A stretch of 64,000 nucleotides of DNA, from contig NZ_BMOO01000006.1 of the NCBI RefSeq assembly GCF_014647115.1, forward strand, positions 1 through 64,000, in the 5' to 3' direction. The DNA is from Halarchaeum rubridurum (GTDB taxonomy: Archaea > Halobacteriota > Halobacteria > Halobacteriales > Halobacteriaceae). Position 1 is the stretch's first letter, and every line of letters starts with the position of its first letter. The notes below the pieces were generated by a model. That model had not been told where the DNA came from. It was given only the letters and a program-made list of their open reading frames with translations, and made no database searches. This document shows positions 34,110 to 57,629 of this stretch, piece after piece. A program made the position numbers and the translations under genes.

Positions 34110-36368
34110 TTAGTCGTCTGAGATAGCCTCCGCTATCTGCTGTCCACTTTCTGTATGGTTAGCGGTCTCTTTAGGTTCCAATACGATATTTGATACCGCT
34201 TCTCCTAATCGTCTCCCGGCAATTGGGGGGACAGCATTGCCGATCTGCCGAAACCAGCTAGTGAACGGGCCAAGGAAGATGTAATCGTCAGGGAAGGATT
34301 GTAGTCGAGCGGCTTCCCTTGGAGTAATCCCTCGATTCCGACGCTTATCTGCCCGATCTGGGTCATGGCGTGCATGTTCGTAGTAGTCTGGCAGGACATA
34401 CGCATTTGCGTCTTTCGCCAAATGCGCGACAATCGTTGGGGACGGCTCATCCCACTCCAGCATCCGGTATTTATCCTTGAATCGCGGTTTCTCTGCCGTC
34501 CCAACATCATATTCGATGTACTCGGCATACTCGCCATCTCCACCATACTTCACATCCCAGCCTGTGTCACCGGGGCTTAACGCTTCATCGAACAGTATCT
34601 GATCCTTGGACATTGGATGGTCGCGGGCCTGATGATTGAACTGTAACCGTGTTCCCGTTTCTAGGTCATTCGTGATTACGTACTTGCTCCGGTTCCCTTG
34701 AGTTGTCTCGGCCAGTACGCGCCCACCTTCTCCACGCCGGAGCCGCGACAACCCCGATAGGCCCTGTTGAATCGACGGTGCATCCTTGTTTATCGCAAGT
34801 CCATCTAGAATATCAGTGACCTCGTTGCTGTTCTCAGCAAGATCTTTTCGCACTCCGACCAGCAAAACGCGGTCGCGTTGCTGGGGAACGCCGAGTTCAC
34901 TCATGTCTTGAACCCGGAAGTCAACATAGTAGCCGGTTCCTGTCTCATCTAGTGCAGCGAGGTCCTCACGCACCCAATCGATCACACGGACACCGGTATT
35001 CCCGACTTCGTTCACCATTCCCTCCACGTTCTCCATCACGATTGCCTTTGGTCGTACCTCACTCACCACATTCACGTATCGGGTGTAGAGCGTGGTCCGA
35101 TCATCGTTGAGGATGCTGTAGTCATCATCGCTAGCGCGCCGTGAACGATAGCCGGCTTGCGAGAGAGATTGACAGGGTGGACCTCCGACGAGGATATCCG
35201 GCTGGCTAACTGCCTCTCGGATTCGATCCGCGACTGAAACCTCCCTAACATCTCCACAGACAACGTTCTCATGAGGAATCTCGGGATGGTTCAGACGATA
35301 GGTCGCGACCGCATCTGGCTCAATATCAATCGCCCACTGGATATCGTATCCAGCCTGTCTAAGTCCACAGGAGAGGCCACCCGCCCCTGCAAACAGATCG
35401 ACGACCGTCGGACCATCGCAGCCAGCCTGTTGCTCGCGAAGACGATGGGTAAGGAGAAACTTCCGTATCTCACAGGTTTCTCCACAGGCATCTGTTCCTG
35501 CCGTGACAGCGTGCGTTGCCAGTGCCCGATACAACGGCGCGATCAGCCGATCTGTCAGCTCTTCCTCCAAACCACTGTGGCGTACTGGCGGATTCTCGAC
35601 AGCGGCCGGGTCTAGGAGGCCCAACGCACCTAGAAGTTCATCGATCTGGGGGTCTGCAGGCCAGACTGGCTTGTCGAATGCAGTTTGGACAAGCCACCAT
35701 GCATCGGCCTCTGTGACCCCCGGAAGTGTGGCAAGGAAGTCGGCATACGTTTCGTACTGGACATTCGAAAAGCCACAGAGAGTAACGCCATCCGTGTAGT
35801 CCGTCCCAACGACGGCATCAAGGAGCGATTCGAGGCGAGTAACTCGATTTTCGCTGATGCCTTTCCGCACACAGACGTCATCTAGTGCGGCCGCTAACCC
35901 ATTGTGGTCCAATGCGCTGATCTCCGCCCACGTACCGTACGTTTCGCGCAGCCGAGCGATTGTCTGGCGTGACTCGCGCTGGAAAAACCGTGCAGCCGGT
36001 CCACTAGTTTCACTGCCGAGGGCCACGGCGGCGACTGCATCAAGCGGGTCGTCACTGTCGAGAAGTGGGTCGGCACACGGGCAGGGTGCTTCATCGTCGT
36101 TGGTGTGCTCACGGTTAATGAGCGTATACCGGCAGGTATCACCAGTTGCTCTTCGTCCCCGGGCTAGTCGCTCCGGGGTTGCGTCCGGGCACCCGACAGG
36201 CAGCATGTGGCCGCGGCGGGACCGGTGGCGTATATGAGCGGCTGTTAGAGTATCGATGAGGAGCTCGGCGCTATCGAGGAGGAGCTGGCGGTGGGCATCA
36301 CGCTCCGCGGTTGACGCAGTCCGGATCAGCGCCAATGGAGAATCGCGAGACGTGACCGAATCGGACAT
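34110..36368 (-). CDS. cytosine-5 DNA methyltransferase with glycosylase-like N-terminal domain
   Basis: 752 residues from the ATG at 36368 (MSDSVTSRDSPLALI). The C-terminal 430 residues form a complete C5 methylase: motif I DLFAGAGGLSCGL (about 324), GGPPCQSLS with the catalytic Cys (about 396), MENVEG (about 445), PQQRDRVLL (about 494) and GNAVPP (about 710). The N-terminal 300 residues are unusual. They contain ARFFQRESRQTIARLRETYG, a helix-hairpin-helix-like LPGVTEADAWWLVQ and DACGETCEIRKFLLTHRL, reminiscent of an EndoIII/HhH-GPD fold, though the catalytic Asp is not clear. It is divergent from a true HhH-GPD glycosylase gene at 36548. It may be a solitary modifier or part of the DISARM locus. 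Confidence 0.88.
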   Translation of the reverse strand: MSDSVTSRDSPLALIRTASTAERDAHRQLLLDSAELLIDTLTAAHIRHRSRRGHMLPVGCPDATPERLARGRRATGDTCRYTLINREHTNDDEAPCPCADPLLDSDDPLDAVAAVALGSETSGPAARFFQRESRQTIARLRETYGTWAEISALDHNGLAAALDDVCVRKGISENRVTRLESLLDAVVGTDYTDGVTLCGFSNVQYETYADFLATLPGVTEADAWWLVQTAFDKPVWPADPQIDELLGALGLLDPAAVENPPVRHSGLEEELTDRLIAPLYRALATHAVTAGTDACGETCEIRKFLLTHRLREQQAGCDGPTVVDLFAGAGGLSCGLRQAGYDIQWAIDIEPDAVATYRLNHPEIPHENVVCGDVREVSVADRIREAVSQPDILVGGPPCQSLSQAGYRSRRASDDDYSILNDDRTTLYTRYVNVVSEVRPKAIVMENVEGMVNEVGNTGVRVIDWVREDLAALDETGTGYYVDFRVQDMSELGVPQQRDRVLLVGVRKDLAENSNEVTDILDGLAINKDAPSIQQGLSGLSRLRRGEGGRVLAETTQGNRSKYVITNDLETGTRLQFNHQARDHPMSKDQILFDEALSPGDTGWDVKYGGDGEYAEYIEYDVGTAEKPRFKDKYRMLEWDEPSPTIVAHLAKDANAYVLPDYYEHARHDPDRADKRRNRGITPREAARLQSFPDDYIFLGPFTSWFRQIGNAVPPIAGRRLGEAVSNIVLEPKETANHTESGQQIAEAISDD

Positions 36369-36547
36369 ACAACATTGTACATCGGCACCAGGGATAAACC
36401 CCTGGATGATCTGTGAGCGTGACCGGAACCGTACCGCGATAACACCTGTAAACGGGTGTTCTGACGTGTGATCACAGGTAGGCCCTGTAACATTGTGCTC
36501 TTCACTGCCGATTCGCTCAAGGGGGATGGTCGTCAAAGTGAAGAGCA

Positions 36548-37339
36548 ATGCCGCTGGCACGGCTGCCGTTCGGGCGGACACAGGTGGGGACTGCTGAACT
36601 CCGGAGCCAGGTCGATATCTCCGCGGCTCGAGATGCGCTGAGGGAAGCTGGGGTTCCTAACGCTGCTGCGCGGATTGATGCAGTTCTCGATACAGTCCCG
36701 GATCTGCTAGCGTGGTTGGCAACACATGGGCGTACGTATCCATGGAGATATACGACTGATCCATGGCGTGTGTATGCGACCGAAATCCTCCTGCAGCGTA
36801 CCCGGGGTGACGCAGTCTTGGACGTCTATTCCCCATTTTTTGCGGCGTTCCCCACACCTGCGGCGCTGCTCGAAGCGGATGACGGCGTGATTCGTGACTT
36901 GGTACGATCGTTGGGATTCGTAAACCAGCGGCTACGCACGCTTCGGGAGGCTGCTGAACTCTGCGTGGTCGAGTATGATGGTGCTGTCCCGGCGGACTTG
37001 GAGGCATTGCAGCGGCCGTGGCGGGTCGGGCCGTACACGGCGCGGGCGTGCCTCCTGTTCGCATTCCACCAGCCCTTAGCACTCGTTGACGCGAACACGG
37101 CCCGGATCACGGGGCGTGTATTCGACTATCCACTGCCGTCGCAACCCCACAAAAGCACGGCTGTCTATCAGATTCTCGATACGCTTGTTCCAGACGACCC
37201 GGGCCTAGCTCGGGCGTTCAATTTCGCGCTTATCGACCTCGGAGCGTCGCGGTGTACAGACTCGACACCAGACTGTGACCAGTGCCCCCTCCAGTCAGGT
37301 TGTTTCTCTGGTAGTCGTGGCGGAACGGATGATGACTGA
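36548..37339 (+). CDS. HhH-GPD mismatch glycosylase (Mig/MutY type)
   Basis: 263 residues. EndoIII fold with HPWR-type start RTYPWRYTTDPWRVYATEIL and LLQRTRGDAV, the hairpin RPWRVGPYTARACL (about 155-168; Tyr where EndoIII has the catalytic Lys), the catalytic Asp in VDANTARITGR (about 179), and the iron-sulfur loop CTDSTPDCDQCPLQSGC (about 236-252). Tyr plus Asp is the arrangement of archaeal Mig T/G-mismatch glycosylases, which repair deaminated 5-methylcytosine; MutY-like adenine removal is the alternative. It is divergent from the cytosine methylase, with about 180 bp between starts, supporting the T/G role. Confidence 0.85.
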   Translation: MPLARLPFGRTQVGTAELRSQVDISAARDALREAGVPNAAARIDAVLDTVPDLLAWLATHGRTYPWRYTTDPWRVYATEILLQRTRGDAVLDVYSPFFAAFPTPAALLEADDGVIRDLVRSLGFVNQRLRTLREAAELCVVEYDGAVPADLEALQRPWRVGPYTARACLLFAFHQPLALVDANTARITGRVFDYPLPSQPHKSTAVYQILDTLVPDDPGLARAFNFALIDLGASRCTDSTPDCDQCPLQSGCFSGSRGGTDDD

Positions 37340-37709
37340 TATAACGGCTGACACGGCAGCTGTCCTCTGATGCGGGTTGTCAGTCTGGTCGCTGAACAGT
37401 CGATTGCGAGAGAGGTACTTGATATTGCCGTATGAATCGTGTGGTGCAAGCTGGTACGCACGCGTGTGCGAGCGCGGGTGGGAGCGCGAGCGCAACGCGC
37501 GGCCACACGCGCGAATCATCACCAACACTCAACCAGATCGCGCCCGAACTTGAGAGGGCGCGATCTGCCCCAAAGCTTATGCGGTCCGCTCCGGTGCGTA
37601 ATGGCATGGTTCCGCTGACCATCAGCACGAACCGCTGTGGCGGCGCTGCTAGCCTGCAGTGCCGTTCCACAGCGCGTTCCGACAGTACGACCGTGTCGTG
37701 TGGTAGTGA
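37340..37709. promoter_or_regulatory. DISARM upstream region with perfect 11-bp-stem hairpin
   Basis: About 370 bp without a supported gene. The main element is agatcgcgccc (37535-37545), a 10-base loop, and gggcgcgatct (37556-37566), a perfect 11-bp stem about 145 bp before the GHKL gene. It could be an operator or a transcript hairpin. An alternating cgcgtgtgcgagcgcgggtg stretch lies near 37460-37510. Confidence 0.5.
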
Positions 37710-40427
37710 ATGAGCGAGCGCGTGTGCCACGCGGGCACCGAGCTGAAAACGTTCGCCGACCGCTTCCTCACGGCGAACGACCCCAGCGAGGTCCACCGTG
37801 TCCTCGCTGACCTCGACGACGCGCACCGCGTTACGTGGGTGCCGCTGGGAAACGACGAGAACAACTATTCCGACGTCTACACGCAGGCCAGCTCCCCAAT
37901 GGCAGCGTTCACCGAACTCCCGCTGAACGCGGAGGACGCCCTCATGTTCCGGTTCTACGACGCGGCCGACGGCGTCGAACCGGATGCCTATTCATCGATG
38001 AAAGACGCCGTTGCCGCCGACTGGGTCAACCTCGACGACGCCGAACTCGAGATCATCGCCGACGGAACGAAACCCACTGACGGTAACCTGCTCAACCTGA
38101 CCGTCCGCGACAACGGGAAAGGCAAAACCCGTGAGAACTTCAGTGACTTCGTCGATCTTCACGCTCCCGGGCTGAAAAAACAGGAGTACGGGTTCCTGCA
38201 GGGCCAGTATGGTATGGGAAGCACCGCAGTCATGCAGTTCTGTGGAGACATCGAGGATGAGTACAACGAGAACGCGTTCAAATTTATTGCGAGCGCATCT
38301 CCCGACGCACCCGGCGAGTGGTCGTGGACACTCGTCCACGATAAACCCCGGAAAGGCCGCGTCGAATACCTCACCATCGACGGCGCGTTCCCCTCTTTCG
38401 ATGGCACGTTCGGCGGGGCACTCACCGAGAAATTCCGTGCAAACTACCCCGACAAGTACGACTTCGCTGCGAACACCACCACCCCCGATCCCCAGACGCA
38501 CGGATCGTTCATCAAGGTCTACGACTACCAGACAAACGCCGCGCGCTCGCTCATCAGCGGTGACGAGGGCTTCCGGCGGAAGTTTCAGCGCTCCGTCGTT
38601 GACTCCCCATACCCGATCCGGCTCACCGACATGCGGTACAACACGAAGCTCCCGCAGAGTACTACTCAGGGGTTCCTGCCGGATCTCCGCCACGGCTACG
38701 ATCACCTCCTCAAGGGAGAAGACCACCTCACCGTCGACACGGGCTCGGAAACGCTGGGTGAACGTGACATCACCGTATTGCTGTTCCACAGCGACGACGC
38801 CCTCGAGGATATCGACACCACCAGTCGGGGCAAGTCAAAGTTCGTCGCCGGTACCACCGGGCACAAGGACTCGGCCGGCCGAACAGGGATTCAGCGTGAC
38901 CACGCCGTGATGTTCACCATCAACGGCCAGACGCACGCCAGTAAGGGTGAATACTTCCTGAAGTCTCTTGGCTACTCAAAGGTCGCCTCAGACACGGTCG
39001 TGATTATAGAGTTCGACGACCTCGCGAACCTCGGCATGGTCAACCTATTTGGTGCATCTCGCGACACGCTCAAGGACTCCCCGCAGGCGAACAAGCTCAT
39101 CACTGCGCTCAAGGATGCACTTGACCGAAGCGACCTTCTCAGTGCCGAGGAGGACCGACGTCGGGCTAGCCGGGGGAATGCCGAGCGCGCGACCGACACC
39201 GAGACGTTCGCTGACTTCATCGAACGGAACCCCGAAATCGGGAACTACATGGCAACCGGGGAACGGGTTGATGCACCTCAAATTCGTCCGAGCGACCGCG
39301 GAGACGATACGCCTGCTGTGCCCGGTGCGTCCTCTCTCCGTGACCATACCGACCCCGGACACGACGACGGGGACGACACCGATGAATCCAGCGGGCCTCC
39401 GGCACCGAAACTCCCAACGTATCTCACGCCCATTAGCGGCTACCATCCCGGGACTGGCGACCACGATCTCTGGGATCCCGCTGACGGCGTGATGGCTGTG
39501 GACATGCCAGCGAACAGCCGGACAACGGTCCGGTTCGCCACGGACGCGCAGAGCGATTACCTTACGCGGGATATTCTGCGTGGATCGCTCACCGTTTCTC
39601 CGTCCGCGCAACTGCACGCGGTCGAACTCCAAGACGGCCTGCTCACTCTCACGCTCACCCCGGGTACTGGCGCCAGCCCCGGTGACGATTTCGCGCTCAC
39701 CGTCGAATTGACGCGTCCTGATCCTCGTGAATGCACGGCACTCAGTGATCCAGCTGACGCCTATCCCGGCGAGGATGCGGGAGCAGTGACGGACGGTGGA
39801 TCCATGGTTGACACGAGCCCGCTAACTGCGATGTGCCGTATCGACTACACCGAGCCGGAGCCATCGACGTCCGAGACGCCATCGACTGACAGCGAGGCGG
39901 ACGACTCCGAGGGGAGTGGCGAATCTGGGAGTGGTGACCGTAACGGCGAAAGTGGGGATGACGGCCAGACGGATGACTGGGGATTCGAGATGCCCGACAT
40001 CGCACGGGTCTACGAGGAGAATTGGCGGACTGACGACGACGAGAATCCGATTGTCCCTGACGAGTTCGACCGTGAGGCTGCGGCTCACTTCGACGAGCAC
40101 ACACTCATCCAGCTGGAGCCAAGTCGTGATGGCTCCATCAGCGGCCTCTCACTCACCATCAACATGGACGCGGCGCCGCTCCAGTCCTTTATCGTGAACC
40201 GCAACGTCAGGGACAATTGGAAGCCGTCCGTTGAGCGTCAGTACGAACTCGCGATGGTGTTCTACACCATCACCATGTACCGTGACTACGTCGCGGAGTA
40301 CGGTACGAGCCTCGAGGGCACGGATCTTATCACAGCTGACGTTGTAGCCCGCAGTATCAACGCTCTCGCTCCCACGATTATGCCGACCATCATCCCGGAC
40401 GACCAGCTCGACCGAATTACGGAATAA
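37710..40427 (+). CDS. GHKL-ATPase protein of the DISARM-like locus
   Basis: 905 residues. A Bergerat-fold ATPase is visible: N-box TELPLNAEDAL (about 69-79), G1 VRDNGKGKTREN (about 131-142) and G2 GQYGMGSTAV (about 165-174). This fold occurs in Hsp90, MutL, gyrase B and MORC-type defence proteins. After about residue 500 there is an acidic, disordered linker, a beta-rich segment with proline and Thr, and a second acidic stretch (TSETPSTDSEADDSEGSGES). The C-terminus (NRNVRDNWKPSVERQYEL) is helical. The stop lies 5 bp before the helicase start, so it is first in the operon. I do not know it as a standard DISARM subunit. It might act as an ATP-driven clamp or sensor. Confidence 0.8.
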   Translation: MSERVCHAGTELKTFADRFLTANDPSEVHRVLADLDDAHRVTWVPLGNDENNYSDVYTQASSPMAAFTELPLNAEDALMFRFYDAADGVEPDAYSSMKDAVAADWVNLDDAELEIIADGTKPTDGNLLNLTVRDNGKGKTRENFSDFVDLHAPGLKKQEYGFLQGQYGMGSTAVMQFCGDIEDEYNENAFKFIASASPDAPGEWSWTLVHDKPRKGRVEYLTIDGAFPSFDGTFGGALTEKFRANYPDKYDFAANTTTPDPQTHGSFIKVYDYQTNAARSLISGDEGFRRKFQRSVVDSPYPIRLTDMRYNTKLPQSTTQGFLPDLRHGYDHLLKGEDHLTVDTGSETLGERDITVLLFHSDDALEDIDTTSRGKSKFVAGTTGHKDSAGRTGIQRDHAVMFTINGQTHASKGEYFLKSLGYSKVASDTVVIIEFDDLANLGMVNLFGASRDTLKDSPQANKLITALKDALDRSDLLSAEEDRRRASRGNAERATDTETFADFIERNPEIGNYMATGERVDAPQIRPSDRGDDTPAVPGASSLRDHTDPGHDDGDDTDESSGPPAPKLPTYLTPISGYHPGTGDHDLWDPADGVMAVDMPANSRTTVRFATDAQSDYLTRDILRGSLTVSPSAQLHAVELQDGLLTLTLTPGTGASPGDDFALTVELTRPDPRECTALSDPADAYPGEDAGAVTDGGSMVDTSPLTAMCRIDYTEPEPSTSETPSTDSEADDSEGSGESGSGDRNGESGDDGQTDDWGFEMPDIARVYEENWRTDDDENPIVPDEFDREAAAHFDEHTLIQLEPSRDGSISGLSLTINMDAAPLQSFIVNRNVRDNWKPSVERQYELAMVFYTITMYRDYVAEYGTSLEGTDLITADVVARSINALAPTIMPTIIPDDQLDRITE

Positions 40428-40432
40428 TCACA

Positions 40433-43400
40433 ATGCCAGCAGGAAATACTACCGGGGCTGAACCCCCGTCTGACGACGAACGAATCGCCCGGCACCTCCG
40501 CGAGACGGTGCTGAAACAGGCTCGTGGCGATATCGACGAGCGAGTCCAGCGAGACTTCCCCAGTGAGCGGTTCTTCGCAGGCGCACTGGCGCCCGAAAGC
40601 GAGGACCAGCTTGACGATCCTGACGACGATCTCCAATCGAAGATGGAGCCGACTGGCCTCGGTGCCACCGTCCGCGTACGAGGTGGCACCGAAGGCGACG
40701 AGTTGATTCTCTCGGTCAACGCGAGCGTCTGGGTCCGTGTTAACCCCACGTATAGGGAGATGGTGAACCGCGACTCGTTTGTCGCGCTGGGAGACCGCGA
40801 CGAGGATGACGAGGGGGACAGCCTGCTCCCTGTCTTCGAGCGGATTGAGCTTGATATACCTCAGATCAAGATTCCAGCGTCTGTGCTCCAGACGTCGAGA
40901 CAGACCACTCCAGAAGTCGTTCAAGAGCGCGCCCGCGAAGCGTTCGAGACGGCCTTCACACACGCCCGCGAGTACGCCCGTGAGAACTACGACCTCTATG
41001 TCGAGACGGAGGACGACGACACTGTCCCGACGGCTGCACTGGCGGACGAGGAGAGCTTCCGTGGCTACCTTGCTGAACGGGCTGCCGAGGGAGACACGGT
41101 TCTTCCTGATTGGCATGCTGCTCTGACCGTTGAGGTAACGCCTGATGAGGAGAATGGTGGCGAGGGTGTCATCGTGGATCTCGAGATCGCCAACGAGGCG
41201 ATTCAGTCGCGTGATGATGCTATCTACACTATCCGGGATCCCACTCTGTTTGAGGTCGGGCTCGAACTGGAGACGACAGGTGATCTTGAGTTCGTTCCGT
41301 TCACTTTCGACCCGCTTCCCGAGGACTTCCGTTACAACCGCGATCTCTGGGGGCATGGGCGGAATTGTACCGTTACCGCACCCGACCGCAACGACCAGCA
41401 GGTGGACGAGGCGGGTATCCCGCCTGGACGTCGTGCCCCTGATGCAGCCCCGACGGCGACGCGGCTAGAGACACAGTTCATTCCGGAGTATCGCCAGCTC
41501 GTCTACGAATCAGCTGATCGCAACGTCGACGCGACGTTCGAGGTGCTTGCAGACCTAGAAAACGGCGGCTTCGACACTCTCGACCAAGTAGCGTCCAAGA
41601 TGCGCCAGTATCTCCGCGAGGAGTACGACGCCGCGCTCGAACAGTATCGCGAGCGCGATGACTGGAACGACGACCCTGAGACGGGCGATCTCGCTGACTT
41701 CAACGATGACCGTGCTGCGTTCGAGCGCGAGATCAAACGCTTCGAACGCGGGGTTGAGTGTCTCCGCCAGCATCTCGAAACGGTCGGGCGTGCGTTCGAA
41801 CTGATGAACGAGGCGATGGATCGGATGCACGAGTTCCCCGGCTGGCGTCTCTTCCAGCTGGTGTTCATCGTCATGGAGGTGCCCGACGTTGCGAGTCGTG
41901 AGTACGAGGAGTGGGCGGACGTTGACTGGCGCGATGGGACGACCGAAGACCGTGCGGAGGATGCCGATTCAGCCCTCGGTGTCGTTGACGTACTCTGGTT
42001 CCCGACGGGTGGTGGGAAGACCGAAGCGTTCCTCGGGGTCGCTGTCTGGAGTATGTTCTTCGACCGACTTCGGGGGAAGGACTTCGGCGTGACCGCCTGG
42101 ACGAAGTTCCCGCTCCGCCTGCTCTCCCTCCAGCAGTTCCAGCGGATGACGGAGACGGTGATGTACGCCGACCTCGTTCGCCGAGAACAATCAGATATTG
42201 GCTCCCATCCCTCCCGTCCGTTCTCGATGGGCTATCTCGTCGGTAAAGCGAACACGCCGAACGCCCTCACTGGATACGACAATAATAACCATCAGCGGTA
42301 TCAGGGAGCTTCTGGAGAGAGTCTCCGTCGTGAGGCGAAAGTCGTCCCCAGCTGTCCGGCCTGCGGCGCGGATGTCGAGGTTCGGATTACCGAGGACGAC
42401 CACCGGTTGACGCACTGCTGTACAGGTAGCAGCTTCGACTGTCCTTGGCAGTCACGCTCGCTGGACTCCGGTGAAACATATGCGGAGGAGGAACTTCCGG
42501 TCCACGTTGTCGACAACGAACTCTACCGGTACGCACCAACGATTCTCGCGGGCACGATCGACAAGATCACCGCCATCGGATATCAGCGGAAGTTCGCCCA
42601 TCTTATTACGGGTGAGATGACGCTAGAGTGCCCGATTCATGGGTTTGCGAGTCTCGATGAGTGTACTGAGAAGTATGGCTGTCCGATTGACCAAGACGAC
42701 TTTGCGGACATGGCTCGGCCCGTCGAACCCTACGACCCTGCGCCGTCGTTGATGGTTCCTGACGAGCTCCACCTGCTTGAAGAGAGCATGGGGAGTTTTG
42801 ACGGCCACTACGAGACGGGAGTGGCTAAACTTCAGGAGCTCGTTGATGCTGGGAAAACGAAAGTGATCGCACCGACAGCGACGATTACTGGATTCGAGGA
42901 CCAGGTGCATAACCTGTTCATGCGACCAGCCGAGCGGTTCCCTTCTCCAGGCCCGTACCTGCGTGAGAACTTCTACGCCCAAGAGCGGGCAGAGACTCAG
43001 CGGTACTATATTGGGCTGGTCCCTCACGGGAAAACCCACATTAACTCCATCATCGATCTTCTGTTCTACTACCACCGCGAGGTCCAGAATCTCTTCCGGA
43101 CGGCCCTGAATGAGCCAAGCCAAGTACTAACTGGCGCCGCACTGGAAGGGACGGACACGACAGCATCGCTTGAGGCTGACTCGATTGACGAGGTATTGGC
43201 GCTGCTCAGTTATTACAGCACCAGTATCACCTATCTCCTATCCAAGAAAGACGGTGACCGGCTAGACCAGTCCATCGTCTCCCAGCTCGACACATATCTT
43301 CAAGAAGACGGTCGGCCGCCACTCGCGTCCGAACGTATGACCGGTGGGACCGGGTTTGAGACCATCATGGAGGTTCTCGACATCGTGGAGAACCCATGGG

Positions 43401-44248: not shown

Positions 44249-44254
44249 TCAACA

Positions 44255-46216: not shown

Positions 46217-46243
46217 CAGGACAACACACCTCTTCTCTCTCAC

Positions 46244-47176: not shown

Positions 47177-47334
47177 GGCTGCACCCCTCCAGAACCGGTT
47201 TCGTGCAGAGTTATCGTCCCAGAATCGCCGGACTCGCGTACAGTCGGCATGGTGGGAAATATTAATCACGTGGAAGGACCCCAGTATAGTATAACTATCG
47301 CGCCCCCACTTACCGCGCTCCCCACTCGCCATCA

Positions 47335-50300: not shown

Positions 50301-51450
50301 ATCGGAGGAGAAAGAGACGGAGGATTTCCGTCCTCTCTTGAGGGGGAGCTTGATTGATCGGTATATTATCAAATGGGATGGGGAATATTGGATCGAATTC
50401 GGAGATTGGTTAGCTGAACCCCGCTATTCGGCAGATTACGACGCAGATAAAAAGATAGTCACACGCCAAACTGGTGATTCACTAATATCGACTGTTGACG
50501 AGGAACAATTTATTGTGCGGAATAATATGTATACTATTCTCCCAAGAAAGGAGTCATATAATATTCACTTGATAAATGCGCTATACAATTCAAAGTTTTT
50601 GAATTGGTATTACCAGAATATTATAAATCCTGAGAAAGGAGAAACACTAGCGGAAGTGAGAAAGGGATATTTAGTGCAATTACCTCTTCCTGAAGAGGAT
50701 AATCAATATGTCGATGAACAGGAAACTGGCGAATCTCAGTTATCGACGGACTTGACTACGCTAATTGAGAAACAGAATATAGATTCATATGACAAATCAT
50801 GCCTCTGCTCTATAATCATAAGCTCATCAAAGAAACTCACTGATTTCAAAAACAAAAAGTTCAATCTCAACACCAATCTCCTCGACTACCTCGGCAACTA
50901 CGCCGACGGTCCCGACCTCCCCGATATCGGCCTGTTCCAGCCTACCGGCTCAAATATCCTTGACGCCACGACCGAAGAGTACGAGAAACTCCAGATTCAG
51001 CGCGCTCGCACGAAGCGCGACGGTTCGACCGTCACCATCGAGGCGACGGCGCGCTACAAGCCCGAGGACGAAGACGAGTTCGAGACCGACACCTATGGCT
51101 ACACCGAGACGGAGTTCCACGAGGCGTTCACGCTCACGAACCTGAGCGACGAGGAGGCCGCACTGGTCGAGGCGTTCGTCCCCGTCGCCGTCGATGAGGA
51201 GGTCGGCGGCTTCCGGGACAACGCCACCAAGACCAACTCACTCATCGACCGCCTGAAGGGGATGACCCTGCCCGATCCCGACGACGTCGCCGACGACCTC
51301 CAACGCTACATCGAGACGAAGGAACGCGCCGACGAACTCGACGAGAAGATCGAGAAGACTGACCAGCTTATCGACGAAATCGTCTATGACCTCTACGACC
51401 TGACTGATGAGGAGATCGAGATCGTGGAAGAAGCGGTCGCCGACAACTGA
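47335..51450 (+). CDS. drmMI: adenine-specific methylase DrmMI (Eco57I type)
   Basis: 1371 residues. The N-terminus has an HSDR-N/PD-(D/E)xK-like fold: LERNVIRPIFDILGV, RRPDYGFFPS (about 89) and AVADAKRWGRKLD (about 117). The gamma-class N6-adenine methylase has motif I LDPAMGSGHFPVNAVD (about 533) and motif IV GNPPYSKH (about 798). After NPPY, about 49738-50868 (residues 801-1178) is AT-rich with codon use unlike the rest, covering the presumed target-recognition domain; GC-rich coding resumes at NLLDYLGNYADG. It marks host DNA in class 1 DISARM. The nuclease-like N-terminus, if active, would make it a type IIG-like enzyme. Confidence 0.87.
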   Translation: MTESTIYRTNRDLFSNHYLDDHLRDTEPWNEVTDAEVEAAFEEINELLTEKRDRVEDYNEAQLERNVIRPIFDILGVSFEIEETVMRNSRRPDYGFFPSAEAADAAFDREDFYEEATAVADAKRWGRKLDTRGEEKRDFENPSYQIHRYLQETPPQWAVLTNGEKWRLYYGPTSHRLDSFYEIDLPKLLDAVDDDGDLEAFKEFYLFFRHEAFLPDQSGDCFLDDVYDESSLFAEDLGEELQENIYEAIRVLAEGFLDTNDGLDEADLELVHDSSLIYLYRLIFVLYAESEGRNLLPTDNEIYSGSYSLNDLKRTVVENRSKTQQQYQAWQTNLWDRLEELFVLIDQGSQGQGIPKEDLYIPAYNGGLFRTNPDADDSVESQFLASHEVGDAYIAEVIELLTRHEASEGDGKVFVDYSSLDERNLGSIYEGLLEYKLDVAAEPLTVDDGEYVTAEDGDAITVEEGEVYLRTDDGERKATGSYYTPEYVVEYIVDETLGPLVDEIREDMLAESARGDERGFAKEFADRVFDLTVLDPAMGSGHFPVNAVDYLAREIINAQEQQDRQALDSEDAEIRSPTTEEGELRDINWARRKVAQRCIYGVDVNPLATELAKVSLWLRTLAAEQPLAFLDHHLKTGNSLVGSDIEEVLSDEDDGATEDGQLTLQQSFDHTRKRAMKHVTDRFQDLLTIDNETLEDAKKMEAVYDDVREDPLYRKLLAMANVHTADAFGLDVPDDADERMARALHSEAWEKIEQQDWFKSAQAMAEEERFFHWELEFPTAFYDQDGSRKADAGFDAVIGNPPYSKHLDSQRKDYFNKVFTYQNYQLDQYLLFIEKIIGVKKPAHSRAGIITPNTWLTNLTFDRIRDLIFGEQDIESFITYSEPVFPEVTVEPTTIIFSSSSSGSQNIRIRKASDGNIVQETTIGQEVLWDGSGSVNISTNLETISIKNKLSSHTRLSDICEINLGTKPFQEGKGNPPQTKKIVENKPFVSEEKETEDFRPLLRGSLIDRYIIKWDGEYWIEFGDWLAEPRYSADYDADKKIVTRQTGDSLISTVDEEQFIVRNNMYTILPRKESYNIHLINALYNSKFLNWYYQNIINPEKGETLAEVRKGYLVQLPLPEEDNQYVDEQETGESQLSTDLTTLIEKQNIDSYDKSCLCSIIISSSKKLTDFKNKKFNLNTNLLDYLGNYADGPDLPDIGLFQPTGSNILDATTEEYEKLQIQRARTKRDGSTVTIEATARYKPEDEDEFETDTYGYTETEFHEAFTLTNLSDEEAALVEAFVPVAVDEEVGGFRDNATKTNSLIDRLKGMTLPDPDDVADDLQRYIETKERADELDEKIEKTDQLIDEIVYDLYDLTDEEIEIVEEAVADN

Positions 51451-51567
51451 ACACAGCGAGGCTCCTCACCCGACGCGTTTCGCGTGACCGATCGCCGGTC
51501 GGGGGTTCTGAGGCTATGGAACCCCTCTCCCGGGGAGGCTGCCGATACTCCGTGGCCTACTGGCGGT

Positions 51568-53148
51568 TCAACATCCGGGCCCGGACGTTTCCTCCGGGTC
51601 CAGTGTGATCTCGCGTGACACAGGAGTACCGTGTCGACCTGGTCGGAAGTGATTCCGAAGCCAGTCGACAAACGGGGTAATGTCGTCGACACGCCCCGAT
51701 GGCTCCCGTCGATGATTACGCCGACCATCGTGGTCACCGTATCCCGGTACGCTGAGCGACGCGATCTCCTTGGGGATCTCGGTACCGTCGTCGCCGAAGT
51801 AGTAGTAATCAGCCGACAGCAGCACTTTCTCGCGGTCCCCCTGCTTCTTGACGTCGGTCTGGTAGTTGTCTAGGCTGTGTCCCCCCTCTGCAAGCTGGAA
51901 GTACGCACCGCCGACGTGCGTGTAGCACAGGTCATCGTCGACGTATCCTCGCTCGTAACTCTCGGTCGGGGCGGCCCCGGAGTCATCCGGTAGCTGATCA
52001 CCGCTGACGCGTTCGATCCTCTCAACCATCTCACGTGGGGCGTAGATATTGTCTCCGCGCGGGTTCTCATCTTCGTCCGGTCGACGGTGCTCGAACCGTT
52101 CGTCCACGAAGTACTCTTTCATCGACAGTGTCTGTTCGACTCGGAACGCGTGGACAATCTGCCGAGACGAGTCATGATCCGATCCGCCGACACCGACTAC
52201 CCAGTCACCGACCTTCGTTGAACTCCGGATCATGGGTTTACAGGTGGCGAGTGAGAGCAGCCCGTTCTTGATATGTGGCGCAAACCCACTATCTGAATCA
52301 ACTACATAGGACCGCAATTTCGGCCTCCCTGAGGCCGCTTCTTGGTCATCTGTACTCTCAAGATACACCTTCGGTGGACTATAACGTCTCCCTGCCTCTA
52401 CCTCTACGTCGCTATCCAGCCAGTCACGAACTTCCCCCGGTGATCCTCGAATCTTCTTCGGGTTCGATCGCTTCAGATCTGTCGCGTTCAGGCCGAGTAG
52501 GTCCTCAGCGACACCAAGTGGCCGGTATTTCTGAAACCACGAACTATCTGTTCCCGTGGCCGTCGCACTGGAGAGGGACACAGCTCGATCCAGCAGTCGA
52601 CTCTGATCAGGGTCACCAGAGACGATGACTGGATATCGGTCTCGATCTGGATCACTCGGATGGAGCGTTTCAGGACCGAGGCCTTCCCGTTTTACGTGGG
52701 CATTATTGGAGAACTTCTTGAGGAGTCCGCCACGATCGCTCGGCGATAGCCCTTCCAAGTCGTGGACTGCTTGGACAGTAAAATACCCGATAGCGTACAT
52801 ACGCGGGCGATCAAGACCGTCCGTCGGCTTGAGTCCGGCACAGAATACCAGCAAATCACCCGATTCCATCTTATTCAGTGAAGCACACTTGTTGTCGCCA
52901 ACTTCACCGTAGGTGTATGTCTCGAACTCAGGGTCCATGTGAACAGGTCTGTTCGTACCAACCCCAACAAATTCCGGAGGAGACTCCCCAATGCGCGAAT
53001 CGAGATCATGGTAGTTCCTTGGTTCAGAGGTGTCACAACTGTCCGGAATCGGAATGTAGTCGAACTCGCTCGAACGAGCTACTGGCCCGAGTCCCTTTCC
53101 TCCAGCATCGGTCGAGTCGAGTCCGACGCGAATCAGATAACTAGTCAT
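51568..53148 (-). CDS. Nmad3-like nucleotide-modification-associated protein
   Basis: 526 residues from the ATG at 53148 (MTSYLIRVGLDSTDAGGKG). The opening LIRVGLDSTDAGG...FDYIPIPDS and later HMDPEFETYTYGEVGDNKCA resemble the putative nucleotide modification associated domain 3 family. A second part around NGLLSLATCKPMIRSSTKVG and DWVVGVGGS resembles the same family's C-terminal half. It lies on the opposite strand between drmMI and drmD. The role is unknown; the name reflects co-occurrence with DNA-modification genes in other genomes. Confidence 0.7.
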   Translation of the reverse strand: MTSYLIRVGLDSTDAGGKGLGPVARSSEFDYIPIPDSCDTSEPRNYHDLDSRIGESPPEFVGVGTNRPVHMDPEFETYTYGEVGDNKCASLNKMESGDLLVFCAGLKPTDGLDRPRMYAIGYFTVQAVHDLEGLSPSDRGGLLKKFSNNAHVKREGLGPETLHPSDPDRDRYPVIVSGDPDQSRLLDRAVSLSSATATGTDSSWFQKYRPLGVAEDLLGLNATDLKRSNPKKIRGSPGEVRDWLDSDVEVEAGRRYSPPKVYLESTDDQEAASGRPKLRSYVVDSDSGFAPHIKNGLLSLATCKPMIRSSTKVGDWVVGVGGSDHDSSRQIVHAFRVEQTLSMKEYFVDERFEHRRPDEDENPRGDNIYAPREMVERIERVSGDQLPDDSGAAPTESYERGYVDDDLCYTHVGGAYFQLAEGGHSLDNYQTDVKKQGDREKVLLSADYYYFGDDGTEIPKEIASLSVPGYGDHDGRRNHRREPSGRVDDITPFVDWLRNHFRPGRHGTPVSREITLDPEETSGPGC

Positions 53149-53274
53149 GATACGAACTATCCAGCATTGATAATAATGGTTTGGCTTCGATAGTTCGGAT
53201 TCTGTATCTGAAGATAACCAACCGACTATCACACACGAAGAGATTAACATCACTAATCACGTTTGCTTTCAGCA

Positions 53275-56217
53275 GTGTCTGATTGCGACTGTGGCTTCGA
53301 AATCGGTGACCGGGTCAGCTTCGCAGGTGGCGAAGGGGAGATCGTCAAAATCAACCATCGCGACTCCGGAGAGTGCCTACTCCACATTCTCACCGACGAC
53401 GATACATCGAAAAAGCTCCCTGCTGCAGTCGCCGACCTGATCGACAGCAGCGACGCCCTGCTCGAGAAGGGGGAGTTCGACGATCCCGAGCGGTTCAACC
53501 TCCGTGCCCGCGCGGCCGAGCTCGACCTCGCTCACCGGCAGGACCGATTCGTCGCCCTTGAGAACAACCGGATCGACATCGCGCCCCACCAGGTAAAGGC
53601 CGCCCACGAAATTCTCACCTCCTACGACCACCGCTACCTCATCGGTGACGAGGTGGGCCTCGGAAAGACCATCGAGGCCGCTATCGTTATTGAGGAGCTC
53701 GCGGCGCGTGGGCAGGCCGACCGTGTGCTCATCGTCGCCCCAGCGCCGCTTACGACACAGTGGCAAGAGGAGCTCCGCGAGAAGTTCGACACGAACTACG
53801 TCATCTACGACCGCGACTACGTCCAGGCGAAGAAGGACGCCCACCCCTCTGAGAACGTCTGGTCACACGAGGACCGCATCATCACCTCCATCGACTTCGC
53901 CAAGCAGGAGGATATGCGCTCGGCGCTGAAGAACATCCAAGAGGACTGGGATATCGCACTCTTCGATGAGTCCCACCACCTCACCGCACGCCGCGAGGGA
54001 AAACGCGGCGTCGACAAGACCGACCGCTATCGCGTCGGGGAAGTCGTCTCTGAAACCTCGGACGGCCTGCTGTTCCTGACTGGAACTCCACACAACGGCA
54101 AACGCGACCAGTTCTACTTCATGATCTCGCTGCTTGACCAGTACCGCTTCCGCGACGAGCATGACGTGAACAAGGAGGGGCTCACGGATCTCATGATTCG
54201 CCGTCTCAAAGACGAGATGTATGAGGCAGACGGATCCCCGATGTTCCCCGAGAAGAACATTCAGACGCTTCCCGTCGAATTCACCGAGCAGGAACGCGAA
54301 CTCTACGAGGATATCACAGAATACATCACTGAGCACTATAATCTCGCCAGCCGAGAGGAAAACGACGCTGCGGGCTTCGCGATGGTGCTGTATCAGAAGC
54401 GGCTTGTCTCTTCGATCTACGCGATTCAGCAGTCACTCCGAAACCGGATGGAGTCAATCAAGGCAGGCGGTGCTGACCTAGGTGACCTCTCACCGGTCAC
54501 GAAGAGTCTTCTCGACGAGTACCGCGATGACCCAGAGATGTTGACCGAGGCACAGCGCGAGAAGGTTGAGGAGGAACTCGGCGCCGCTGCTGCCTCTACA
54601 GACCCTGCTAAGATCGACGAAGAGCTCTCGATGGTCAAAGACCTCTACAACCAGGCGAAAGCAATCCAAGTCGACTCGAAAGCAGAACGTCTGCGGGAAT
54701 ACGTCGACGGCATTCTCGCCGAGGACCCGGAGGAGAAAATCCTCATCTTCACCGAGTACACGGACACTCTCGAATATCTCAAGGGCCGGGTCTTCGACGA
54801 CAGAGATATCGCTGAGATCTACGGTGACCTCTCGCAGTCCCAACGCCAACAACAGTTCGAGAAATTCGAGGGACCAGCGAACGTGATGCTTGCGACTGAC
54901 GCCGCCAGAGAGGGGCTAAACCTGCAATTTGCCCACATCATGGTGAACTACGACCTGCCGTGGAACCCGACGCGGATCGACCAACGTATCGGGCGCCTCC
55001 ACCGCTATGGCCAGGATGAGACCGTCGAGATCCGGAATCTGTTCTTCAAAGACACCAGAGAGAGCACGATTCTTGAGCGGCTACTGGAGAAGATTGACGA
55101 GATCGAGGAAACACTCGGCATGAGCTCTGACGTGCTAGGGCTGGTCCTCGACGATGTCGACCTTGAGGAGCAGATCATGTCCGCGCTTGCGAGCGGTGAG
55201 AGTCCCGACGACGTCGCCGATGACCTCGAACAGATAGTTGAGGACCAAGAGAAGGCTGTCCGCCGCGTTGACGACGAGCTTCTTATCCGCGATAAGTTCG
55301 ACCTGAGCAAGGAAGATAAGGAGATCCTGGATATTGTCGAAGAGAGTGCTGAAGACACAGTTGGGGAAGCGGACGTGGCGTATCTCGTCGAGACCGTCTG
55401 CCGCGAGTTTGGTGGGGGGCTCGTCAACCGACGCCTAGGCCCTGCTGAAAATGGCGACGAGGTCTTCGATCTCGTCATGCCCGAGGAGCTGACTGGTGAC
55501 GATGTCCAGAGCCGGTACGACGGTGCCACATTTGATCGAGAGAACGCTCTCGCAGACGAGGATCTCGAATTCATCACGCTGGATCACTCCGCTGTTCGGG
55601 CGATGATGGCGTACTGTCTAGACACGGACGCTGTTGGTGGCCAAACAGCAGTACTTACTACAGGGGAAGGCATGGACACGCCTGGACTGCTCTGCCATTA
55701 CCGGATTGGCTATCTCTCTGGGACCGGCGACACTGTCACCGAGCGACTCGTCCAAGTGTACGTTACGCCGAACGGGCACACACGAACTGAGGATATTGAC
55801 ATTACTGGTGGCCTCCCCCCGGCATCTGTGGAGGAGTATCCTGTGGTTGACGCTGTCAGTGCTGAGGCCGAACGACTTGTCGAGACTGCAGAAGAGGTGG
55901 CGTGGGATCTCATCGATGACTTGGCTGAAGAAGCTCGCGCCGAGCGGGAACGGGAGGTCGGGATTCGGAGAGAGCACGCAAAGAACTACTTTGAGCACCG
56001 AATCGAGGATCTTGAAGAGCAAATCAGGACATTTGAGGAGCGTGACAGGGCGGGTGAGGACATGAGTGCGGTCCTCGCGAAGCACCGGAGTGAGCTTGCC
56101 ACTCTCCGAGAGAAGAAAAACGCTGAATTAGCACGGCTTGACGGTGAGAAACAGGTTGTGCCGGATGAGCCGGAACTTGTGAATATGGCGGTCGTTATCG
56201 ACGCCTTTGAGGACTGA
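53275..56217 (+). CDS. drmD: SNF2-family helicase DrmD
   Basis: 980 residues from the GTG at 53275 (read MSDCDCGFEIGDRVSF); a TTG four codons earlier is an alternative. SNF2 motifs: Walker A DEVGLGKTIEAAIV (about 125), DESHHL (about 232), FLTGTPHNGKRDQF, LIFTEYTDTLEYLKG (about 492) and QRIGRLHRYGQ (about 570). The C-terminus is coiled-coil-like (EHRIEDLEEQIRTFEERDRA). DrmD with DrmMI defines class 1 DISARM, which this locus follows except for additions. The order is rearranged: it sits after the Nmad3-like gene. Confidence 0.87.
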   Translation: MSDCDCGFEIGDRVSFAGGEGEIVKINHRDSGECLLHILTDDDTSKKLPAAVADLIDSSDALLEKGEFDDPERFNLRARAAELDLAHRQDRFVALENNRIDIAPHQVKAAHEILTSYDHRYLIGDEVGLGKTIEAAIVIEELAARGQADRVLIVAPAPLTTQWQEELREKFDTNYVIYDRDYVQAKKDAHPSENVWSHEDRIITSIDFAKQEDMRSALKNIQEDWDIALFDESHHLTARREGKRGVDKTDRYRVGEVVSETSDGLLFLTGTPHNGKRDQFYFMISLLDQYRFRDEHDVNKEGLTDLMIRRLKDEMYEADGSPMFPEKNIQTLPVEFTEQERELYEDITEYITEHYNLASREENDAAGFAMVLYQKRLVSSIYAIQQSLRNRMESIKAGGADLGDLSPVTKSLLDEYRDDPEMLTEAQREKVEEELGAAAASTDPAKIDEELSMVKDLYNQAKAIQVDSKAERLREYVDGILAEDPEEKILIFTEYTDTLEYLKGRVFDDRDIAEIYGDLSQSQRQQQFEKFEGPANVMLATDAAREGLNLQFAHIMVNYDLPWNPTRIDQRIGRLHRYGQDETVEIRNLFFKDTRESTILERLLEKIDEIEETLGMSSDVLGLVLDDVDLEEQIMSALASGESPDDVADDLEQIVEDQEKAVRRVDDELLIRDKFDLSKEDKEILDIVEESAEDTVGEADVAYLVETVCREFGGGLVNRRLGPAENGDEVFDLVMPEELTGDDVQSRYDGATFDRENALADEDLEFITLDHSAVRAMMAYCLDTDAVGGQTAVLTTGEGMDTPGLLCHYRIGYLSGTGDTVTERLVQVYVTPNGHTRTEDIDITGGLPPASVEEYPVVDAVSAEAERLVETAEEVAWDLIDDLAEEARAEREREVGIRREHAKNYFEHRIEDLEEQIRTFEERDRAGEDMSAVLAKHRSELATLREKKNAELARLDGEKQVVPDEPELVNMAVVIDAFED

Positions 56218-56264
56218 CTGCGTTTCCGAATCGCTTTCCACGTTCCGGGTGCAGTACTATTGCA

Positions 56265-57629
56265 ATGGGTACTCAGCCATCTGCATTCGATCTCTTCTGT
56301 GGTGCTGGCGGGCTCACTGAGGGGCTCAAGCGAGCTGGCTATCACGTATGCTGGGCAATTGACCATGATGCCGCAGCTGTCGAAACCTACCAGGAGAACC
56401 ACGGTGGCCACGCTATCGAGGCGGATATTCGAAAGACGGATCCTGCTGTCGATGGCCCAGATATTGAACCGGGTGAGCTTGACCTCCTTGCAGGTGGCCC
56501 CCCGTGCCCTTCTTTTTCCACGATTGGCCGGTCGAAGCTGGGCTCCCTTGAGGACCGCTCTGTAGACGATGACGATCGAAATGTGCTATATCTCGATTTC
56601 CTACGGTATGTGGATCACTTTCGGCCACGAGCGTTCGTGATGGAGAACGTCCCCGGGATGCTCTCAGATACTGCCACTGTCGAGTCTGGTACTATCCAAG
56701 AATCACTCCCGGTTGGGACAGAGCAAGAGACGGAACGACACCCGGTCGGCGAAGAAATCCCCATCCCCGAGATCATCCTCGATGAGATGGCCAGTCTCGG
56801 CTATACTGCGGACTACTTTCTTCTTGATGCAGCGCAGTTCGGGGTTCCACAGCACCGAGAGCGGCTTTTCTTCGTCGGGCGTCGAACTGGGGAGACACTT
56901 CCGGATTTCGAACGATGGCGAACACACCGCGAACCTCACCGTCGTGAAAGAGAGCAGCCGATGACGATCCGTCCTGAACTCAAGGATGGAGATACTGCTC
57001 AGGAGACGCTTGGCGAGGATCATCCGGGGTCACTGCCGTCATTCAAACCCGATCGGAAGCAACGGCAGCCATATCTGACGGTGGCAGATGCGATTATGGA
57101 TCTCCCTCCAATTTCGCCGGAGGGAGAGATGCCGCCGAGCCAAGCGACTGAGTATACACTCCCACCAATCTCGCCGTATCAAGAATGGGTACGCAATATT
57201 CCCGACGGAGACTGCTGGGAAGACCAGCCGCTTCGAAACCACGAAGCACGATGGCACAACCATCTCGATCTCTCGATTTACAAGCTCCTCGGGCACGGTG
57301 TCGGGTGGAATATCGGCCAAGTGAGCACCGAGATTCAGCCGTATCGGGACGACATCTTCCCAGATAAGTACAAGAAGCAGAATCCGGCGCAGCCCGCATC
57401 AACGATCCTCGCCCACATTCAGAAGGACGGCCACATGTATATCCATCCAACTGAGGCGCGTTCGCTCTCGCCCCGGGAGGCTGCTCGCCTCCAGTCATTC
57501 AGGGATACATACTGGTTCCCTGAAAGTCGGACGAACGCCTATCGCCTGATTGGGAATGCCGTTCCGCCGCGGTTAGGAGAGGCCGTTGGGACCGCGATCA
57601 AAGAAGTAGTTCTTGGTAGCGACGATTAG
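56265..57629 (+). CDS. drmMII: cytosine-5 DNA methyltransferase (DrmMII type)
   Basis: 454 residues. C5 motifs: I FDLFCGAGGLTEGLKRAGY (about 8-26), IV GGPPCPSFSTIGRS with the catalytic Cys (about 78), VI MENVPGML (about 126), VIII PQHRERLFFVG (about 194) and X GNAVPPRLGEA near the end. It starts 47 bp after drmD on the same strand, so it belongs to the operon. In the literature DrmMII marks class 2 DISARM while DrmMI and DrmD mark class 1; both being present here makes a hybrid. A mobile cassette begins 9 bp after the stop. Confidence 0.88.
   Translation: MGTQPSAFDLFCGAGGLTEGLKRAGYHVCWAIDHDAAAVETYQENHGGHAIEADIRKTDPAVDGPDIEPGELDLLAGGPPCPSFSTIGRSKLGSLEDRSVDDDDRNVLYLDFLRYVDHFRPRAFVMENVPGMLSDTATVESGTIQESLPVGTEQETERHPVGEEIPIPEIILDEMASLGYTADYFLLDAAQFGVPQHRERLFFVGRRTGETLPDFERWRTHREPHRREREQPMTIRPELKDGDTAQETLGEDHPGSLPSFKPDRKQRQPYLTVADAIMDLPPISPEGEMPPSQATEYTLPPISPYQEWVRNIPDGDCWEDQPLRNHEARWHNHLDLSIYKLLGHGVGWNIGQVSTEIQPYRDDIFPDKYKKQNPAQPASTILAHIQKDGHMYIHPTEARSLSPREAARLQSFRDTYWFPESRTNAYRLIGNAVPPRLGEAVGTAIKEVVLGSDD

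What the first reader, a model, noticed from the sequence alone, without database searches (positions are those of the whole stretch)
34110..57629. Hybrid DISARM-like locus with extra ATPase, two cytosine methylases and Nmad3-like gene
DrmA, DrmB, DrmC, DrmMI and DrmD are recognisable by motifs (class 1), but the operon also carries a DrmMII-type C5 methylase (a class 2 marker), a GHKL-ATPase as first gene and an Nmad3-like gene on the opposite strand, with another C5 methylase/glycosylase pair just upstream. The observed tight spacing (5, 6 and 27 bp) supports an operon for the first four genes. That this is a functional variant is inference.
Basis: partly seen in the sequence, partly recalled or inferred. 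Interest (0 to 1): 0.85.

Follow-up and report, generated by a model that had tools for sequence, protein, structure and literature searches.

The report
Haloarchaeal DISARM defence with GHKL clamp
This salt-loving archaeon carries a complete, divergent class 1 DISARM antivirus gene cluster in which an extra clamp-type ATPase gene has been built in front of the core helicase gene and inherited with it in several unrelated species, so the ATPase is probably a working part of the defence, while the odd opposite-strand gene looks like exchangeable cargo.

Summary
Window 34110-57629 encodes C5-MTase, HhH glycosylase, GHKL ATPase, DrmA, DrmB, DrmC, DrmMI, Nmad3-Nmad2 (opposite strand), DrmD and a second C5-MTase, all open. 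It meets PADLOC's definition of class 1 DISARM. DrmMI plus DrmMII is not a class hybrid: the characterised Serratia DISARM has both. I found 16 relatives: a haloarchaeal subtype with DrmABC, DrmMI, DrmD and two C5-MTases, often with a Mig-like T:G glycosylase. In the window's nine-locus DrmA clade, six have an intact GHKL gene directly before drmA, one a frameshifted copy, one a remnant, one none; the eight other loci lack it. GHKL and DrmA trees agree, GHKL is under purifying selection (dN/dS about 0.12-0.16), and its adjacency to drmA survives rearrangement of the other genes. A distant relative sits just before the YprA helicase of an ARMADA-like operon. Most likely GHKL is a MutL/MORC-like clamp acting with DrmAB; that mechanism is inferred. 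Nmad3-Nmad2 is cargo in a slot that usually holds an SRA-like-HNH nuclease. New variant of a known kind.

The parts
34110..36368 (-). C5-cytosine MTase 1 (753 aa, start revised): invariant N-terminal 4 Cys, EndoIII-like HhH domain, then C5-MTase with PCQ, ENV, QxRxR and GNA motifs
   Evidence: Pfam PF00145; alignment of 13 homologues; N-terminal domain to EndoIII in the PDB 7e-5; present in all 17 loci
36548..37339 (+). Mig/MutY-type HhH DNA glycosylase with C-x6-C-x2-C-x5-C [4Fe4S] ligands, probably a T:G mismatch thymine glycosylase
   Evidence: best PDB match 1kea, G-T mismatch repair enzyme, 3e-46; alignment
37710..40427 (+). GHKL-S5 clamp ATPase (paraMORC-like), 905 aa, first gene of the DrmABC operon
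   Evidence: invariant E69/N73/D76, D134-G136-G138, G165/G168/G170; AF2 model matches GRP94, GyrB, MORC3, SMCHD1, TopoVI-B, prob 1.0; recurs upstream of drmA
40433..44248 (+). DrmA, YprA-family SF2 helicase
   Evidence: PADLOC DrmA 4e-156; PDB 7s9v chain A, both RecA domains
44255..46216 (+). DrmB (MZB/DUF1998)
   Evidence: PADLOC 2e-53; PDB 7s9v chain B 5e-6
46244..47176 (+). DrmC, PLD-family (HxKx4D) nuclease
   Evidence: PADLOC 2e-13, PLDc_2 2e-11
47335..51450 (+). DrmMI, Eco57I/PglX-like adenine MTase with TaqI_C specificity domain (NPPY)
   Evidence: PADLOC DrmMI 5e-95; Pfam; its tree disagrees with DrmA's
51568..53148 (-). Nmad3-Nmad2 fusion (about 526 aa, start revised), cargo in the DrmMI-DrmD interval; possible EVE/PUA-like modified-base reader
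   Evidence: Pfam; weak Foldseek matches to EVE and McrB-N domains; the same slot holds AspBHI_N-HNH in 8 relatives
53263..56217 (+). DrmD/BrxHII-type RapA-like SNF2 helicase
   Evidence: NCBIfam DrmD 8e-127; PADLOC BrxHII 4e-165, DrmD 3e-112
56265..57629 (+). C5-cytosine MTase 2 (DrmMII)
   Evidence: PADLOC DrmMII 1e-81, generic MTase_II 5e-85; Pfam
58245..59633 (-). GmrSD_N-HNH type IV restriction-like gene adjoining the locus (neighbour, membership uncertain)
   Evidence: Pfam; a different GmrSD lies inside the related locus G349

Best explanation
A complete class 1 DISARM of a distinct haloarchaeal subtype, in which a GHKL-S5 clamp ATPase has become part of the DrmABC operon. DrmMI (adenine) and two C5-MTases mark self DNA; the Mig-like glycosylase repairs T:G mismatches arising from deaminated m5C; DrmAB, with DrmD and the DrmC nuclease, attack unmarked DNA. 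The GHKL dimer most likely acts like MutL or MORC: ATP binding closes a clamp on incoming DNA, and it recruits, licenses or unlocks the DrmAB helicase. Nmad3-Nmad2 is an exchangeable passenger in a slot that usually holds an SRA-like-HNH modification-dependent nuclease. SHOWN: gene identities, conserved motifs, recurrence, congruent GHKL and DrmA trees, purifying selection, fold of the GHKL protein. INFERRED: antivirus activity, the methylation marks, the coupling of clamp to helicase, the roles of the glycosylase and of Nmad.
For: All five class 1 components found, no DrmE (definition). 16 relatives share the core. GHKL lies directly before drmA in six loci, plus one frameshifted copy and one remnant, of a nine-locus clade, and in none of eight outside it. 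GHKL and DrmA trees agree: G102 first, then the window, then the rest. In G102 the GHKL-drmABC block persists although drmMI and drmD point the other way, as in the GHKL-less clade. GHKL dN/dS 0.12-0.16. Six of the eight genomes with close GHKL are among the 15 with this DrmA, of 391 (P 3e-8, not corrected for kinship). Independent case: a GHKL 30% alike directly before the YprA helicase of an ARMADA-like operon. GHKL/paraMORC proteins with SF2 helicases and methylases are established in restriction systems (PMC2292703), and a paraMORC3-type ATPase is essential for phage defence in VcSduA (PMC12137116).
Against: The DrmA-GHKL association probably arose once and spread horizontally, so six loci are not six independent events. 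It was lost or decayed in three of nine loci, so it is dispensable or conditional. The GHKL family occurs elsewhere with MTases and no DrmA (G091, G152, own genome C4, bacteria). No interaction was modelled and no activity tested. NCBIfam cut-offs for DrmA, B, C and D are not reached.
Confidence: 0.6

Rival explanations
1. The GHKL gene belongs to a separate restriction-modification cassette (GHKL plus C5-MTases and glycosylase) that merely sits beside DISARM in a defence island.
For: G091 holds a stand-alone run GHKL-DrmMII-C5MT1 with no drmABC; a Bacteroidota locus has GHKL with a Mig-like glycosylase and a C5-MTase and no Drm helicase; the window genome has another GHKL beside an N4/N6 MTase.
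Against: The C5-MTases are present in all eight GHKL-less DISARM loci outside the clade, so they did not arrive with GHKL; in G102 GHKL is with drmABC while the C5-MTases lie beyond drmD; GHKL is within a few bases of drmA in most loci.
Confidence: 0.2
2. GHKL is a regulator, chaperone or safety catch that restrains DrmAB on host DNA rather than an attack component.
For: It is encoded just ahead of DrmA, its fold resembles Hsp90 as well as GyrB and MORC, and loci without it exist, as expected of a modifier.
Against: Nothing tested here distinguishes it; if it were needed to prevent self-harm, G284 and DL31, which lack it, should not keep open drmABC genes.
Confidence: 0.15
3. Nmad3-Nmad2 and the two C5-MTases hypermodify host DNA, so the locus is a base-hypermodification system joined to DISARM.
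For: Pfam names the domains nucleotide-modification associated; Nmad3 also lies in two other loci of the subtype (G233 by Pfam; G260 by similarity).
Against: No base-synthesis enzymes in the locus; the fusion is absent from the other 16 DISARM loci; the weak fold matches are to base readers, not enzymes.
Confidence: 0.05

Closest known systems
DISARM class 1 (Serratia operon; DrmAB cryo-EM, PMC9142583)
   Same: DrmA, B, C, D, MI and a C5-MTase; DrmA and DrmB match PDB 7s9v
   Different: Divergent: DrmA, B, C and D all score below the NCBIfam cut-offs; extra HhH-fused C5-MTase, Mig-like glycosylase and GHKL ATPase; SRA-like-HNH or Nmad cargo
MORC/paraMORC GHKL ATPases of restriction systems (PMC2292703)
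   Same: GHKL+S5 ATPase encoded with SF2 helicases, C5-MTases and nucleases
   Different: The helicase types named there (Rad25-like, SWI2/SNF2, a third SF2 group) do not include DrmA/YprA by name; long C-terminal extension; no sequence match to any PDB chain
ARMADA (PMC12458937)
   Same: [quoted passage not shown] one haloarchaeal ARMADA-like operon (G050) also has GHKL directly before YprA
   Different: The window's YprA homologue is DrmA with separate DrmB and DrmC; no DruE-like helicase. The preprint's main text does not mention GHKL
Mig.Mth thymine glycosylase (PDB 1kea)
   Same: HhH + [4Fe4S] glycosylase, 3e-46, encoded beside a C5-MTase
   Different: Part of a DISARM locus; about 50 extra N-terminal residues
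VcSduA, a paraMORC3-Shedu defence protein (PMC12137116)
   Same: GHKL ATPase needed for antiphage defence
   Different: There GHKL is fused to its nuclease; here it stands alone before a helicase operon

Membership tests
DISARM class 1 (PADLOC type I definition) | DrmA, DrmB, DrmC, DrmD and DrmMI all present | tested here: met
   PADLOC profiles 4e-156, 2e-53, 2e-13, 3e-112, 5e-95; definition from PMC9252829. DrmD scores higher as BrxHII in PADLOC.
DISARM class 1 (PADLOC type I definition) | DrmE absent | tested here: met
   no DrmE match shown for the ten locus proteins
DISARM, NCBIfam curated models | scores above curated cut-offs | tested here: not met
   DrmA 398 of 950 bits, DrmB 75 of 240, DrmC 57 of 133, DrmD 425 of 610: a divergent branch
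DISARM | restricts viruses | not testable with these tools
   needs a bench test
DISARM class 2 | DrmE and DrmMII | tested here: not met
   DrmMII present, DrmE absent
GHKL-S5 ATPases | N-box ExxxNxxD, DxGxG and GxxGxG motifs | tested here: met
   invariant in 13 homologues
GHKL-S5 ATPases | GHKL plus S5/transducer fold | tested here: met
   Foldseek to GRP94 1e-10, GyrB 43K 4e-8, MORC3 8e-8; model pLDDT 69
MORC/paraMORC (a named subfamily) | phylogenetic placement within a described MORC or paraMORC subfamily | not tested
   no reference sequences of those subfamilies were aligned
ARMADA | DruE/ARMADA-type YprA helicase | tested here: not met
   all ten PADLOC families matched by the window helicase are DrmA; no DruE
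BREX type 2 | PglZ with PglW, BrxHII and PglX | tested here: not met
   [quoted passage not shown] no PglZ among the locus proteins
Mig-type T:G glycosylase | HhH-GPD with [4Fe4S] ligands and closest solved relative Mig | tested here: met
   C236/C243/C246/C252 invariant, 1kea best; substrate not tested
EVE/PUA-like modified-base readers (for Nmad3-Nmad2) | PUA-like fold | tested here: inconclusive
   the first seven Foldseek hits are mostly EVE-type or McrB-N domains, but E 0.1-0.5 and probability at most 0.69

The most novel reading that the evidence does not exclude
A MORC-like clamp ATPase is an essential gate of a YprA-helicase defence: 'GHKL + YprA helicase' is a module assembled independently in DISARM and in ARMADA, which would tie prokaryotic helicase immunity mechanistically to MORC/MutL clamp silencing and repair.
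Probability: 0.25. Interest if true: 0.75.

Novelty: new variant of a known kind. Interest (0 to 1): 0.55.

Why it matters
How DrmAB is aimed at non-self DNA and kept off the host is still open (PMC9142583). A clamp ATPase co-inherited with the DrmABC operon offers a natural, genetically separable handle on that question: the same subtype exists with and without GHKL, so its effect can be tested by removal. It also shows a haloarchaeal DISARM branch that public records label only as hypothetical or helicase proteins, and it extends the link between GHKL/MORC ATPases and restriction systems to the YprA helicases.

Tried and rejected
Hybrid class 1/2: rejected (Serratia has both MTases; no DrmE). 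GHKL as a DrmE homologue in the same position: a DrmE-like 919-aa protein directly before drmA in G115 shows no similarity to GHKL. Viral origin of GHKL or Nmad: no GHKL relative in IMG/VR contigs, no Nmad match in 50,697 phage records. Sequence search of the PDB with the GHKL and Nmad profiles: nothing for GHKL, only chance-level for Nmad. Profile comparison of the C5-MTase N-terminal domain with the Mig-like protein: only a 20-column weak match, although a PDB profile search finds EndoIII. Looking for more ARMADA-GHKL pairs with the G050 GHKL protein: 15 genomes matched, 14 of them already known, no new pair (the single new match, in G030, is weak and its surroundings were not read).
Full report
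WHAT IS THERE. The window belongs to a 2.8-Mb haloarchaeal genome (contig C6, 93 kb), and the same 64 kb holds two Orc1/Cdc6 genes, two P-type heavy-metal ATPases and a transposase, which suggests a plasmid-like replicon. PADLOC gives DrmA 4e-156, DrmB 2e-53, DrmC 2e-13, DrmMI 5e-95, DrmD 3e-112, and C5-MTases that match DrmMII at 5e-62 and 1e-81; Pfam gives HhH-GPD, Nmad3, Nmad2, Eco57I, SNF2 and PLD domains. The spacings 5, 6 and 27 bp are exact. NCBIfam names the same families but below its cut-offs, so this is a divergent branch that such annotation would not call DISARM; related public records indeed say 'hypothetical protein' and 'helicase-related protein'.

CLASS. By the published definition (DrmA, B, C, D, MI; no DrmE) this is class 1. 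The presence of a DrmMII-type C5-MTase is not a class mixture: the Serratia operon used for the DrmAB structures also has both an adenine and a cytosine methyltransferase (PMC9142583). DrmA aligns with the Serratia DrmA over both RecA domains and DrmB with the Serratia DrmB.

RELATIVES. In 391 haloarchaeal genomes the window DrmA finds 14 others at about 56-92% identity, then a drop to 49% and below. Two more came from plasmids, Halarchaeum sp. CBA1220 and halophilic archaeon DL31. All 17 loci have DrmA, DrmB and the first C5-MTase, and DrmC wherever the contig reaches it; all that are not cut off by contig ends also have DrmMI, DrmD and the second C5-MTase. The Mig-like glycosylase is intact in six (window, G213, G145, G208, G233, G159) and split or partial in G034 and G092. 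This is a stable subtype.

GHKL. The 905-aa protein has invariant GHKL motifs across 13 homologues down to 23% identity, and its AlphaFold model, though of moderate confidence (pLDDT 69), matches Hsp90/GRP94, GyrB, MORC3, SMCHD1 and topoisomerase VI-B with probability 1.0. It lies directly before drmA in the window, Natrinema gari (G092), Natronobeatus ordinarius (G213), G255, G102 and Halarchaeum, at distances from a 4-nt overlap (longest-ORF starts) to about 35 bp. It is split by a frameshift in Natrinema pallidum (G034; possibly an assembly error), reduced to a 61-aa C-terminal remnant in DL31, and absent in G284. It is absent in all eight loci outside that DrmA clade. The GHKL and DrmA trees agree where resolved, so the gene was most simply gained once and inherited with drmA. 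In G102 the other genes keep the divergent arrangement of the GHKL-less clade, yet GHKL still precedes drmA. dN/dS is 0.12-0.16 for GHKL and 0.04-0.07 for DrmA: maintained, but evolving faster, like DrmMI.

GHKL ELSEWHERE. More distant GHKL genes sit beside N4/N6 MTases (own genome C4, G140, G149), beside MTase, REase and GmrSD genes (G111, G152), and with C5MT1 and DrmMII but no DISARM helicase (G091). In G050 a GHKL gene lies 93 bp before a DruE/YprA helicase in an ARMADA-like operon with BrxHII-like, PglX-like, REase and OLD-type genes. Bacterial relatives commonly pair with an MTase; one Bacteroidota locus pairs it with a Mig-like glycosylase and a C5-MTase. This fits the paraMORC pattern described in 2008 (PMC2292703).

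C5-MTASES AND GLYCOSYLASE. The first C5-MTase has an N-terminal four-cysteine cluster and a domain whose profile finds endonuclease III (7e-5), conserved in 13 homologues. The separate HhH protein is closest to Mig, the G-T mismatch enzyme 1kea (3e-46), with the MutY/EndoIII cluster spacing. That Mig-type enzymes beside C5-MTases repair deaminated m5C rests on established knowledge of Mig.Mth, not on a test here.

NMAD SLOT. In the interval between drmMI and drmD eight relatives have an AspBHI_N (SRA-like) plus HNH protein, and one a remnant of it. In the window the slot holds Nmad3-Nmad2 instead; in G260 it holds an Nmad3-like protein (31% over about 190 aa); in G233 an Nmad3 protein lies elsewhere in the locus. 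Nmad3-like matches are common in haloarchaea (265 of 391 genomes). The AlphaFold model (pLDDT 77) gives only weak Foldseek matches, but the leading ones are mostly EVE and McrB N-terminal domains, readers of modified bases. GmrSD genes, another modification-dependent type, lie inside G349 and beside the window locus. The theme may be that DISARM against unmarked DNA is paired with a device against modified DNA; this is inference.

MECHANISM. From the Serratia work, DrmAB is autoinhibited, loads on 5'-overhang DNA and is less active on m5C DNA (PMC9142583). MutL, a GHKL protein, links mark and mismatch recognition to helicase and nuclease (PMC2292703). The simplest reading is that GHKL does the same for DrmAB and DrmC: a clamp that closes on incoming DNA and recruits or unlocks the helicase. 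Its absence in half of the subtype shows that it modifies rather than defines DISARM.

LIMITS. The GHKL-DrmA link is probably one origin spread by transfer, so its recurrence shows maintenance rather than repeated invention; the ARMADA case is the only independent one found. The hypergeometric P (3e-8) ignores kinship. No complex was modelled and nothing was tested at the bench. Gene calls in relatives come from a simple ORF script, and several loci are cut by contig ends.

Noticed in passing
own genome G000 C4:190631-194062 (L059:632-4063): A second GHKL ATPase (about 30% identical to the window's) in tandem with an N4/N6 MTase; the same pair occurs in G140 and G149.
   Followed up: partly
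G091 C1, L043:1147-7704: Low-GC3 three-gene run GHKL-DrmMII-C5MT1 without any DISARM helicase: either a stand-alone cassette or a DISARM remnant.
   Followed up: partly
G050 C1, L044:146-17707: ARMADA-like operon with REase_II, OLD-type ATPase-TOPRIM and GHKL genes between the PglX-like MTase and the YprA helicase.
   Followed up: partly
window 47335-51450 and relatives: The DrmMI tree disagrees strongly with the DrmA and DrmD trees (e.g. G034 with G260, DL31 with G188): recombination or specificity swapping of the adenine MTase.
   Followed up: partly
window 51568-51600 (C-terminus of Nmad3-Nmad2): Relatives end in a conserved terminal Cys (GPGC, GSGC or GTGC in window, G024, G097, G260; TNC in G334); meaning unknown.
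   Followed up: no
window 58245-59633 (-): GmrSD_N-HNH gene right after the locus.
   Followed up: no
L181:9965-18840 (uncultured Cenarchaeum MAG): A distant GHKL gene lies about 3 kb from a full DrmA gene on the other strand.
   Followed up: partly
L140:6910-18888 (G138) and L137:8200-19371 (G141): A different haloarchaeal DISARM-like type: drmABC followed by three 505-567-aa proteins with no PADLOC match (tested for G138); G138 has a Mig-like glycosylase directly before drmA.
   Followed up: no
window 13641-15005, 26082-27407, 2536-5130, 6201-8540: Two Orc1/Cdc6 genes and two heavy-metal P-type ATPases: plasmid-like context.
   Followed up: no
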